From Arthrobacter sp. zg-Y20 (GTDB lineage: Bacteria > Actinomycetota > Actinomycetes > Actinomycetales > Micrococcaceae), in contig NZ_CP126241.1 of the NCBI RefSeq assembly GCF_030142075.1, positions 2,666,001 to 2,730,000 of the forward strand: a stretch of 64,000 nt of DNA, written 5' to 3'. The notes beneath the pieces are model-generated. The model had not been told where the DNA came from, did not search any database, and saw only the letters and a list, made by a program, of their open reading frames with translations. Each line of letters begins with the position of its first letter. Positions within the stretch are counted from its first letter, which is position 1. The translations under genes were made by a program, and so were the position numbers. Below are positions 25,424 through 33,488 of the stretch, in pieces.

Positions 25424-27013
25424 CTATTCCCACTCGATTGTTCCGGGTGGCTTGGACGTGACATCCAGCACTACGCGGTTGATTCCGTCTACCTCGTTGG
25501 TGATGCGGTTGGAAATACGTGCCAGCAGGTCGTACGGCAGGCGTGACCAGTCTGCTGTCATTGCGTCTTCGCTCGAGACCGGGCGCAGGACGATGGGGTG
25601 GCCGTAGGTCCGGCCGTCGCCCTGCACGCCCACGCTGCGCACGTCGGCGAGCAGGACCACCGGCATCTGCCACACCTCGTTGTCCAGGCCGGCAGCGGTC
25701 AGCTCGGCGCGGGCAATGGCGTCGGCACGGCGGAGCAGGTCCAGGCGTTCCTTGGTGACCTCGCCGACAATGCGGATACCCAGGCCGGGGCCGGGGAACG
25801 GCTGGCGTCCCACGATTTCGGCGGGCAGGCCGAGCTCGGCACCCACGGCGCGGACTTCGTCCTTGAACAGCGCCCGCAGGGGCTCCACGAGTTCGAACTT
25901 CATGTCCTCGGGCAGCCCGCCCACGTTGTGGTGGCTCTTGATGTTGGCTGCGCCTTCACCGCCGCCGGACTCGACGACGTCGGGGTACAGGGTGCCCTGG
26001 ACCAGGAAGCGGATGGGCTCGCCCTCGGCTTCGGCCTTGGCCATGATGGCCCGCTCGGCTTCTTCGAAGGCCCGGATGAACTCGCGGCCGATGATCTTGC
26101 GCTTCGTCTCCGGATCCGACACCCCGGCAAGTGCGCTCAGGAAGCGCTCCTGCTCGTTGGCCACATACAGGTTGACGCCGGTGGCGGCCACGAAATCGCG
26201 TTCCACCTGCTCGGCTTCGCCTTCACGCAGCAGCCCGTGGTCCACGAAGACACAGGTCAGCTGGTCGCCGACGGCGCGCTGGACCAGGGCGGCGGCTACA
26301 GCGGAGTCGACGCCGCCGGAGAGTCCGCAGATAACCCGGGAAGTGCCGACCTGGGCGCGGATGCGGGCAACCTGCTCTTCCACGATGTTGCCCGTGGTCC
26401 AGCTGCGGTCCAGCTTGGCGCCCTTGAAGAGGAAGTTCTCCAGCACGGTCTGGCCGTGGGCGGAGTGCTTGACCTCGGGGTGCCACTGCACGCCGTAGAG
26501 GCCCTTTTCCTCATTCGCGAAGGCCGCCACCGGTGCTCCGGCAGTGCTGGCGAGCACGTCGAAGCCTTCCGGGGCTTCCTGGACGCTGTCGCCGTGGCTC
26601 ATCCACGTGTTCTGCTCCTCGGGGGTGCCCTCAAGGATGGACCGGGCACCGCCGACGGCGCGGGCATCGGTGGAGCCGTACTCGCGCAGGCCCGTCTTGG
26701 CCACCTTGCCGCCCAGGGCGGCAGCCATGGCCTGGAAGCCGTAGCAGATGCCGAATACGGGCACGCCGGCTTCGAACAGGTCGGTGTGCACGGTCGGGGC
26801 GCCTTCGGCGTAAACGCTGGAGGGGCCGCCGGAAAGGATGATGGCAGCCGGGTTCTTCGCCAGCAGCTGCTCGGTGGTGTAGGTGTGGGGAACCACCTCG
26901 GAGTAGACGTCGGCTTCGCGCACCCGGCGGGCAATCAACTGGGCGTACTGTGCTCCGTAGTCCACAACAAGGACGGGCCGCTCTTCAATGGGGTCAGTCG
27001 CGGGATTAGTCAC
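25424..27013 (-). CDS. guaA: GMP synthase (glutamine-hydrolysing)
   Basis: Converts XMP to GMP with glutamine and ATP. 529 aa. An N-terminal class I glutamine amidotransferase domain (FGICYGFQ nucleophile Cys, HxE in QWHPEV) is followed by the ATP pyrophosphatase P-loop [13 protein letters not shown] and the C-terminal dimerisation domain ending [12 protein letters not shown] start at 27013 without an obvious Shine-Dalgarno. It works with guaB, encoded 5 kb away on the same strand. Confidence 0.98.
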
Positions 27014-30674: not shown

Positions 30675-31814
30675 TTACAGGTTGTACTGGTACGGCGAAA
30701 CCAACACCTCAATACGCTGGAACGCCTTGAGGTCCGAATACCCGGTGGTCGCCATGGCCCGGCGCAGCGCGCCCATCAGGTTCGAGGTGCCGTTGGTGTG
30801 GTGGGAGGGGCCCCACAGGACTTCCCGAAGCGGTCCCACGGTGTCCAGCCGGACCCTGTCGCCGCGCGGCAGCTCGCTGTGGTGGGCTTCCTGGCCCCAG
30901 TGCCAGCCCTGCCCCGGCGCCTCTTCGGCGCGGGCCAGAGCGGAACCGAGCATTACCGCGTCGGCGCCCATGGCGAAGGCCTTGATGATGTCGCCGCTGG
31001 TGCCCATGCCGCCGTCGGCAATGACGTGCACGTACCGGCCGCCGGACTCATCCATGTAGTCCCGGCGCGCTTCGGCAATGTCGGAGATGGCCGTAGCCAT
31101 GGGGGCGTGGATGCCCAGGGCGCGGCGGGTGGTGGTGGTGGCTCCGCCGCCGAAGCCGACCAGCACGCCGGCGGCGCCGGTGCGCATCAGGTGCAGGGCC
31201 GGGGTGTAGCCGGCAGCGCCGCCGACAATTACGGGGACATCGAGTTCGTAGATGAACTGCTTCAGGTTCAGCGGTTCCACGTTCTTGGACACGTGCTCGG
31301 CCGAAACGGTGGTGCCGCGGATGACGAAAACGTCGACGCCGGCAGCCAGGACCGTCTTGTAGAACTCCTGGGTGCGCTGCGGGGTGAGCGAACCGGCAAC
31401 CGTCACGCCGGCGTCGCGCATCTCGGCCAGCCGGGAACTGATCAGCTCGGCGCGGATGGGAGCGTCGTAGATTTCCTGCAGGCGGGCGGTGGCGGCGGGA
31501 TTGAAGTTGTCGCGGCTGAGCTCGGCAATTTCGTCCAGCAGCGGCTGCGGATCTTCGTACCGGGTCCACAGGCCTTCGAGGTTCAGCACACCCAGGCCGC
31601 CCAGCTTGCCCAGCGCAATGGCGGAGGCCGGGGACATGACCGAGTCCATGGGCGCGCCGATGACCGGCATCTCGAACTGGTAGGCGTCTATCTGCCAGTT
31701 GATCGAGACGTCCTGCGGATCACGGGTACGCCGCGAGGGCACAATTGCCACGTCATCCAGGGAGTAGGCTCTGCGCCCTTGCTTGCCACGGCCAATTTCA
31801 ATCTCGTTACTCAC
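30675..31814 (-). CDS. guaB3: GuaB3 family IMP dehydrogenase-related protein
   Basis: 379 aa, TIM-barrel of the IMPDH/GMP reductase superfamily without CBS domains. Conserved start VSNEIEIGRGKQGRRAYSLDD; the GTG at 31814 fits it, and upstream TTG/GTG extensions do not. The position of the catalytic-cysteine loop reads GFGGGATTTTRRALGIH, so threonine replaces the cysteine, and the whole protein contains no cysteine. IMPDH and GMP reductase chemistry needs that cysteine, so its reaction is uncertain. Located directly behind guaB, as in mycobacteria (guaB2-guaB3). Confidence 0.93.
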   Translation of the reverse strand: MSNEIEIGRGKQGRRAYSLDDVAIVPSRRTRDPQDVSINWQIDAYQFEMPVIGAPMDSVMSPASAIALGKLGGLGVLNLEGLWTRYEDPQPLLDEIAELSRDNFNPAATARLQEIYDAPIRAELISSRLAEMRDAGVTVAGSLTPQRTQEFYKTVLAAGVDVFVIRGTTVSAEHVSKNVEPLNLKQFIYELDVPVIVGGAAGYTPALHLMRTGAAGVLVGFGGGATTTTRRALGIHAPMATAISDIAEARRDYMDESGGRYVHVIADGGMGTSGDIIKAFAMGADAVMLGSALARAEEAPGQGWHWGQEAHHSELPRGDRVRLDTVGPLREVLWGPSHHTNGTSNLMGALRRAMATTGYSDLKAFQRIEVLVSPYQYNL

Positions 31815-31855
31815 ACTCCCTAGGTTATCCCAGTGTGTGACGGGAGGCTTAAACA

Positions 31856-31896
31856 CCAAGGGCAGCCGCCGCGCAGTGCGCAGGAGCTGCCCTTGG
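31856..31896 (-). terminator. guaB terminator
   Basis: An 11-bp perfect stem (arm CCAAGGGCAGC) lies 12 bp past the guaB stop; on the minus strand it is followed by TGTTTAAG. It separates guaB from guaB3, so guaB3 probably has its own promoter in the A+T-richer 31800-31855 segment. Confidence 0.65.
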
Positions 31897-31907
31897 CCGG
31901 AAACCGG

Positions 31908-33488
<1,581 letters not shown>

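What the first reader, a model, noticed from the sequence alone, without database searches (positions are those of the whole stretch)
30675..31814. GuaB3 without any cysteine
The loop that in IMPDH carries the catalytic cysteine (SICTTR) reads ATTTTR, and no cysteine occurs in the 379 residues. IMPDH and GMP reductase both use that cysteine covalently. The protein is nevertheless kept next to guaB. It may be a regulator, a nucleotide sensor or an enzyme with different chemistry.
Basis: partly seen in the sequence, partly recalled or inferred. Interest (0 to 1): 0.5.

Follow-up and report, generated by a model that had tools for sequence, protein, structure and literature searches.

The report
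Retired IMP dehydrogenase kept beside replacement
This actinobacterial gene encodes an old relative of the enzyme that starts guanine-nucleotide synthesis; it has lost the cysteine and other parts that the chemistry seems to need, sits next to the standard enzyme, and is still strongly preserved for a reason that has not been shown.

Summary
A minus-strand GuaB3 (TIGR01304) of 379 residues has no cysteine; Thr227 stands at the catalytic-cysteine position. A sequencing error is excluded: all 28 intact copies in the genus agree. It is not peculiar to this window: the missing cysteine is in print for M. tuberculosis GuaB3, and 87 of 92 genomes of the class whose sequence I saw lack it. In most sampled actinobacteria outside the class GuaB3 keeps the cysteine and a C-terminal TEGK tail and usually lies directly upstream of guaA; in 51 of 53 such genomes tested no other IMPDH-like gene was found. 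In this class canonical guaB stands upstream of guaB3, and cysteine and tail are mostly gone. Intermediates exist: cysteine without guaB, cysteine with guaB, glycine with the tail kept. The Cys-to-Ser form of Synechocystis GuaB3 is titled catalytically inactive in the PDB. The gene is under strong purifying selection (dN/dS about 0.05). Best reading: a superseded IMPDH kept as a non-catalytic, probably regulatory, purine-site protein. Different chemistry is disfavoured, because no residues visibly became fixed with the loss. The role itself is unproven.

The parts
30675..31814 (-). guaB3, Cys-less GuaB3 protein, 379 aa (GTG start)
   Evidence: TIGR01304 572 bits, cut-off 342; translation; AF2 model pLDDT 85.8, best matches 8p37/8p4q Z 52.5, 2qr6 Z 50.0
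31125..31142 (-). loop A225-R230 (ATTTTR); the T227 codon (31134-31136) stands at the catalytic-cysteine column
   Evidence: alignment columns; 144 of 258 rows have Cys here, 114 do not (rows include duplicates); model pLDDT of residues 221-230 is 57
31008..31016 (-). D267-G268-G269, IMP phosphate/ribose motif (ADGG), retained
   Evidence: aligned with DGG of GuaB and ADGG of GuaB1; the role is recalled from IMPDH literature
30888..30902 (-). H305-E309 HWGQE, in place of HWGMA of Cys-type GuaB3 (YRGMG of GuaB)
   Evidence: Met308 column: M in 144 of 144 Cys rows, 33 of 114 non-Cys rows; hhalign
30675..30707 (-). C-terminus without the TEGKxLQxxQxVGMG tail
   Evidence: tail in 142 of 144 Cys rows (the other two, L187 and L189, cut by contig ends) and 2 of 114 non-Cys rows; tail also in 8p4q and aligned with the GuaB1 tail
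31820..31829 (-). GATAACCTAG, conserved promoter -10-like element just before the GTG (probably a leaderless start; inference)
   Evidence: in 29 of 29 sequences looked at: 28 of the genus and L032 of the sister genus; the rest of the intergenic region varies. The generic sigma-70 scan found nothing
31908..33428 (-). guaB, canonical IMPDH with SICTTR and CBS domains
   Evidence: TIGR01302 590 bits, cut-off 481.5; CBS PF00571
28886..30616 (-). glycerol-3-phosphate dehydrogenase-like gene downstream of guaB3
   Evidence: NF008899 340 bits, below its cut-off of 360
25424..27013 (-). guaA, GMP synthase, the usual direct neighbour of Cys-type guaB3
   Evidence: NF000848 769 bits; neighbourhood survey

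Best explanation
The protein is a non-catalytic descendant of a GuaB3-type IMP dehydrogenase. In the older arrangement, still seen in many actinobacteria outside this class and in a few lineages inside it, GuaB3 bears the cysteine and is usually the only IMPDH candidate; outside the class its gene lies directly upstream of guaA. In the ancestry of this class a canonical guaB came to stand upstream of guaB3 and took over the reaction. GuaB3 then lost the nucleophilic cysteine, the GPG turn, the base-contacting Met and the C-terminal TEGK tail, but kept its barrel and, in this lineage, the phosphate/ribose motifs (DGG, GS). It is kept by strong purifying selection, probably as a purine-nucleotide-binding regulatory or structural partner, with GuaB the likeliest client. 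Shown here: the loss, its distribution, the neighbourhood difference, the selection, the predicted fold. Inferred: the direction of the change and the lack of IMPDH/GMPR activity. Conjectured: ligand binding and the regulatory role.
For: (1) In 296 Actinobacteriota genomes GuaB3 is found in 232 at 1e-60. The loop is Cys in 183 (171 by DNA pattern; 12 more by sequence), not Cys in 48 (35 genomes of the class: 33 by sequence, 2 by absence of the pattern only; 13 outside the class by sequence) and undetermined in 1 (G006, split). Canonical GuaB at 1e-110 is present in 46 of 48 Cys-less genomes and 11 of 183 Cys genomes. Of the two Cys-less exceptions G276 has a guaB whose frame breaks off and G286 shows only a GuaB1-type hit. 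(2) 51 of 53 chosen Cys genomes have no TIGR01302 hit at 1e-40; the other two have hits of 313 and 324 bits, in the GuaB1 range (in three of the 53 only 25 of 27-34 candidates were scored). (3) guaA is within 700 bp downstream on the same strand in 86 of 98 Cys loci with at least 2.4 kb on both sides (in the locus at all in 90), against 4 of 27 Cys-less loci (6 in the locus at all); guaB is upstream on the same strand in 93 of 94 loci that hold it. (4) In-class intermediates: Cys with no GuaB found in the genome (G299, G430), Cys with guaB adjacent (G303, G319, G331), Gly with the tail kept and guaB adjacent (G302 = L246; L179). (5) 8p37, the AASTSR variant of 8p4q, is titled a catalytically inactive mutant. 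(6) dN/dS median 0.046 for guaB3 and 0.068 for most of guaB in the same 28 genomes, 374 pairs. (7) After the loss the position wanders: H 57, T 17, S 14, D 6, N 2, G 2, L 1, A 1, R 1 in 101 rows (duplicates included). (8) M. tuberculosis: papers report GuaB2 as the only active IMPDH (passages).
Against: No activity or binding was measured. 11 of 183 Cys genomes also have GuaB (six of these hits lie below the curated cut-off), so the two coexist without loss of Cys. The association is not many independent events: the tree needs 3 changes of Cys state, the AU test does not reject one clade of all Cys-less rows (p 0.585, the held tree even more likely), and independent pairs number 2-3, too few for a sign test. 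Direction is inferred from the cyanobacterial outgroup and the intermediates; no GuaB tree was made. A regulatory role has no direct support: 3 of 196 genomes of the class show no GuaB3 and do have GuaB, guaB3 in this genus may have its own promoter, and mycobacterial-type members have lost the DGG motif (ADGD). One paper's table lists Rv3410c as an ortholog of C. diphtheriae GuaB with the active-site Cys conserved (PMC5504048, passage); this conflicts and I take it for a mix-up with Rv3411c.
Confidence: 0.75

Rival explanations
1. A working enzyme with different, cysteine-free chemistry on a purine nucleotide, with the pocket rebuilt around His/Ser/Thr and the nearly invariant Arg317.
For: Very low dN/dS; Arg317 kept in 113 of 114 Cys-less rows and the DGG aspartate in 92 of 114; His is the commonest replacement (57 of 101 rows).
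Against: The replacement residue takes nine letters; 19-20 of the 21 columns fixed in Cys-less core proteins were already as in the window in Cys-bearing class members L244, L247 and L260, so nothing was visibly gained with the loss; M308, G269 and the tail are lost or variable.
Confidence: 0.12
2. The specific form of the best explanation in which GuaB3 is a dedicated allosteric subunit: it senses IMP/XMP/GMP and binds GuaB oligomers to tune flux.
For: guaB upstream on the same strand in 93 of 94 loci that hold it; nucleotide motifs retained in the window lineage; IMPDH fold predicted.
Against: The neighbourhood may simply be inherited from the guaB3-guaA arrangement; the genes are kilobases apart in sister lineages; possible own promoter; I saw no interaction data in the listings or in the passages of the papers opened.
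Confidence: 0.35
3. Residual IMPDH or GMP reductase activity without the cysteine.
For: Fold and parts of the IMP site retained.
Against: Cys is invariant in the GuaB, GuaB1 and Cys-type GuaB3 alignments made here; the Cys-to-Ser form is titled inactive; only GuaB2 is reported active in M. tuberculosis.
Confidence: 0.04
4. A decaying pseudogene or a sequencing error at the loop.
For: One of 29 genomes of the genus (G478) has guaB3 in two frames.
Against: 28 of 28 intact copies share the loop and dN/dS is 0.046; 193 of 196 genomes of the class hold the gene.
Confidence: 0.01

Closest known systems
Actinomycete GuaB3 (NCBIfam TIGR01304; M. tuberculosis Rv3410c; C. glutamicum structure 2qr6)
   Same: Same family, no Cys at the loop, IMPDH barrel without CBS domains; beside guaB2 in M. 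tuberculosis.
   Different: The window lineage keeps DGG and GS; 2qr6 has a shortened loop and ADGS.
Cyanobacterial GuaB3 (Synechocystis 8p4q, 8p37), called an IMP dehydrogenase; Hernandez-Gomez et al. 2023 is not held and is known here from citing passages in PMC13273366 and PDB titles
   Same: 47% identity, Z 52.5 over 374 residues; no CBS domains (passage).
   Different: Has the cysteine and the TEGK tail; guaB3 is reported essential in S. elongatus (passage).
Canonical GuaB/IMPDH (TIGR01302)
   Same: Catalytic barrel, Z about 36.
   Different: Window GuaB has SICTTR, a DRYF flap (flap role recalled) and CBS domains; window GuaB3 scores 126 against a cut-off of 481.5.
GuaB1-type GMP reductase (NF052358)
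   Same: Same superfamily; its C-terminus aligns with the TEGK tail of Cys-type GuaB3.
   Different: GuaB1-type proteins have GPGAMCTT; the window protein lacks Cys and tail and scores 65 against 675.

Membership tests
GuaB3 family (TIGR01304) | Score over the curated cut-off, full length | tested here: met
   572.4 bits against 342.1, profile 1-365 of 365
GuaB3 family (TIGR01304) | IMPDH/GMPR barrel without CBS domains | tested here: met
   PF00478 matched, no CBS match; fold match to 8p4q and 2qr6
IMP dehydrogenase (enzyme) | Catalytic cysteine in the GPGSxCTTR-type loop | tested here: not met
   Thr227 at the Cys column
IMP dehydrogenase (enzyme) | Curated score for IMPDH (TIGR01302) | tested here: not met
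   126.3 bits against 481.5
IMP dehydrogenase (enzyme) | IMP to XMP turnover with NAD+ | not testable with these tools
   needs purified protein
Catalytically active GuaB3 (cyanobacterial type) | Cys plus C-terminal TEGK tail | tested here: not met
   both absent in the window; both present in 8p4q
GMP reductase | Catalytic cysteine and curated score | tested here: not met
   no Cys; at most 64.7 bits against cut-offs of 344 to 675
Pseudoenzyme | Fold retained, catalytic residues lost, gene under selection | tested here: met
   (fold by prediction)
Pseudoenzyme | Absence of activity shown | not testable with these tools
   only indirect: 8p37 title and the M. tuberculosis statements

The most novel reading that the evidence does not exclude
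In the ancestry of this class (by inference the Actinomycetia) the cell's only IMP dehydrogenase, a GuaB3, was replaced on the spot by a canonical GuaB placed directly upstream, and the old enzyme was not discarded but turned into a dedicated non-catalytic purine-nucleotide regulator still conserved across the class, while actinobacteria of the Acidimicrobiia and Thermoleophilia type still run on Cys-GuaB3 alone, encoded with guaA.
Probability: 0.35. Interest if true: 0.65.

Novelty: new member of a known kind. Interest (0 to 1): 0.4.

Why it matters
GuaB3 is listed as a third IMPDH-like protein of mycobacteria with unknown function (passages). The survey gives it a history and a clear prediction: Cys-GuaB3 should complement a guaB mutant, Cys-less GuaB3 should not, and the lineages with Cys plus guaB, or Gly plus tail, are the places to test what the protein does once the reaction is taken over. 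It also points to actinobacterial groups whose only IMPDH candidate is a GuaB3.

Tried and rejected
Sequencing error: rejected. Absence of all cysteines as the signal: weak, neighbours are Cys-poor too. Gain of new pocket residues with the loss of Cys: looked for, 21 candidate columns found, but 19-20 of them are already so in three Cys-bearing members of the class. Counting independent losses: the tree gives 3 changes but one origin is not rejected, so no number of losses is claimed. Correlated-evolution test: too few independent pairs; the Fisher test ignores kinship and is not used. A first DNA pattern was mis-spaced by one codon and found nothing; corrected. hhalign of Cys-type GuaB3 with GuaB stopped before the C-terminus, so equating the TEGK tail with the ESHPHD end of GuaB is not shown; with GuaB1 it aligned. 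The generic promoter/terminator scan found nothing near guaB3.

Limits of counts. In some searches only the best five to six candidates per genome were scored. Of 64 genomes without a GuaB3 hit, 30 have GuaB and 34 have neither at these strict thresholds; two of them (G184, G291) hold GuaB3 fragments at 1e-40. Rows dropped before counts: five short fragments (L116, L118, L119, L241, L242). The 258 rows hold duplicates (the window gene three times; L085/L086 repeat L054/L063). In one search, 11 of 111 rows lacked genome-level GuaB data, and G276 was counted as lacking GuaB, which one search corrects. The class count (87 of 92 Cys-less) is 87 of 90 genomes in the alignment plus G319 and G331; the other class genomes with GuaB3 were not read.

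Not tried: a GuaB tree, a second structure job, a GuaB-GuaB3 complex (no tool), cyanobacterial genomes beyond the PDB sequence (no genome scans left). Literature: the 2023 GuaB3 paper is not held. Searches for GuaB3, Rv3410c, pseudoenzyme, Acidimicrobi and IMP dehydrogenase-related showed me no functional study of Cys-less GuaB3; I read passages of 10 of the 19 papers listed and only titles and abstract starts of the rest, and subscription journals are mostly outside the library.

Full report
WHAT IS THERE. The gene is on the minus strand, 31814 to 30675, 379 residues, no cysteine. It is a full-length GuaB3 (TIGR01304, 572 bits, cut-off 342) and not an IMPDH, GMP reductase or GuaB1 by curated score. 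Canonical guaB with SICTTR and CBS domains lies 93 bp upstream. Downstream come a glycerol-3-phosphate dehydrogenase-like gene, further genes and, about 3.7 kb away, guaA. The AF2 model (33 sequences, pLDDT 85.8; 57 over residues 221-230) matches Synechocystis GuaB3 (Z 52.5), C. glutamicum GuaB3 2qr6 (Z 50.0) and IMPDH catalytic domains (Z about 36).

THE LOSS IS REAL AND OLD. In the genus, 28 intact copies, the window's included, have an identical loop and no cysteine at all; one further genome, G478, has the gene in two frames. dN/dS by a simple Nei-Gojobori count is 0.046 (median of 374 pairs) against 0.068 for the part of guaB in hand (470 codons) in the same genomes. This is not a decaying gene. 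In M. tuberculosis the missing cysteine was remarked on in 2015 (PMC4594927, figure-legend passage), and only GuaB2 is reported active (PMC10912719 and PMC3315515, passages). A table in PMC5504048 (passage) gives Rv3410c as the ortholog of a Cys-bearing GuaB; I take this for a mix-up with the neighbouring guaB2, Rv3411c.

THE REST OF THE PHYLUM IS MOSTLY DIFFERENT. Of 296 Actinobacteriota genomes, 232 have GuaB3 at 1e-60. The cysteine is present in 183, absent in 48, undetermined in 1. All 35 sampled genomes of the window's class are in the absent group (33 by sequence, 2 by absence of the Cys pattern only), with 13 outside the class (families f16, f65, f66, and G231 of f31). Canonical GuaB (TIGR01302, 1e-110) is present in 46 of 48 Cys-less and 11 of 183 Cys genomes. 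One Cys-less exception, G276, has a guaB whose frame breaks off; the other, G286, is a 92% complete draft with a GuaB1-type hit only. A laxer search (1e-40) in 53 chosen Cys genomes found nothing in 51 and GuaB1-like scores in two. A denser look at the class found GuaB3 in 193 of 196 genomes; of 92 whose sequence I saw, in 35 families, 87 lack the Cys and five keep it. Organism names from another collection place Cys-type GuaB3 among bins labelled Acidimicrobiia, Thermoleophilia, Solirubrobacterales and Rubrobacter, with the caution that these are metagenome bins and some labels look wrong. The name Actinomycetia for the window's class is my inference from Streptomyces, Streptosporangium and Thermobifida rows lying among class rows in the tree.

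THE NEIGHBOURHOOD TELLS THE STORY. Among loci with at least 2.4 kb on both sides, guaA is within 700 bp downstream on the same strand in 86 of 98 Cys loci (in the locus at all in 90) and in 4 of 27 Cys-less loci (6 in the locus at all). Where guaB is in the locus it is upstream on the same strand in 93 of 94, within 300 bp by open frames in 91 of 94. So the common pair outside the class is guaB3-guaA, and guaB stands in front of guaB3 in this class. Inside the class, G299 and G430 keep Cys and show no GuaB, G303, G319 and G331 keep Cys with guaB adjacent, and G302 (with L179) has Gly, guaB adjacent and the tail still present.

WHAT ELSE WENT. Cys-type GuaB3 ends in a TEGKxLQxxQxVGMG-like tail, as does Synechocystis GuaB3; the profile of this end aligns with the end of GuaB1. 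It is present in 142 of 144 Cys rows, the other two being cut by contig ends, and in 2 of 114 Cys-less rows (rows include duplicates). The Met of HWGM (aligned with YRGM of GuaB and FGM of GuaB1) is kept in 144 of 144 Cys and 33 of 114 Cys-less rows; the third residue of DGG in 144 of 144 and 70 of 114; Arg317 in 144 of 144 and 113 of 114. Among representatives (46 Cys, 52 Cys-less of the class), 67 columns are conserved in both groups and 44 conserved in Cys-type are relaxed in the Cys-less core. The window lineage keeps DGG and GS; mycobacterial-type members read ADGD, so nucleotide binding may not be common to all.

NO SIGN OF A NEW ACTIVE SITE. The former cysteine position is H, T, S, D, N, G, L, A or R in 101 Cys-less rows outside the f16-type group. 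The 21 columns fixed in the Cys-less core but not in Cys-type as a whole are already the window's residue in 19-20 of 21 cases in Cys-bearing class members L244, L247 and L260. They mark the class, not the loss. The PDB title of 8p37 calls that form of Synechocystis GuaB3 a catalytically inactive mutant, and its sequence differs from 8p4q at the loop by Ser for Cys; Ser stands there naturally in several Cys-less lineages.

LIMITS. The tree needs three changes of Cys state, yet a single clade of all Cys-less rows is not rejected, and the held tree even had the higher likelihood; independent pairs are too few to test the link with guaB. Direction rests on the cyanobacterial outgroup and the intermediates. 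Adjacency to guaB is not strict, and in this genus a conserved GATAACCTAG element five bases before the GTG (29 of 29 sequences) suggests that guaB3 has its own leaderless transcript. A text in print says guaB2 and guaB3 form an operon in M. tuberculosis (PMC5073100, passage). Three of 196 genomes of the class show GuaB and no GuaB3, so GuaB seems able to work alone there.

VERDICT. A correct observation about a known family, partly already in print. The added value is the family history, which makes the open question of what actinomycete GuaB3 does directly testable.

Noticed in passing
window 31820-31829: GATAACCTAG is invariant five bases upstream of the guaB3 GTG in all 28 genus members looked at and in one sister-genus genome, amid a highly variable intergenic region: probable leaderless promoter.
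   Followed up: partly
window 31856-31896: A GC-rich inverted repeat (CCAAGGGCAGC...GCTGCCCTTGG) follows guaB; by eye several genus members have a different hairpin at this place. Possible terminator, not found by the generic scan.
   Followed up: no
L329/L330 (genome G478, same genus): guaB3 is split into two overlapping frames in a 94% complete single-contig genome: real frameshift or assembly error.
   Followed up: no
L104, L050, L216, and genome G223 (family f31, genus g129): One genus holds several states: Cys-GuaB3 with GuaB (G154, G281), GuaB3 with a loop deletion and GuaB (G231), GuaB with no GuaB3 found (G223).
   Followed up: partly
L143, L165: Metagenome bins titled Bifidobacterium breve carry GuaB3 next to guaA of the Cys type; the labels are probably wrong.
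   Followed up: no
L235-L237, L239, L240 (family f80): These class members have Asp at the Cys column and ADGG changed to AHG[GD], a separate style of decay, while G430 of the same family code keeps Cys.
   Followed up: no
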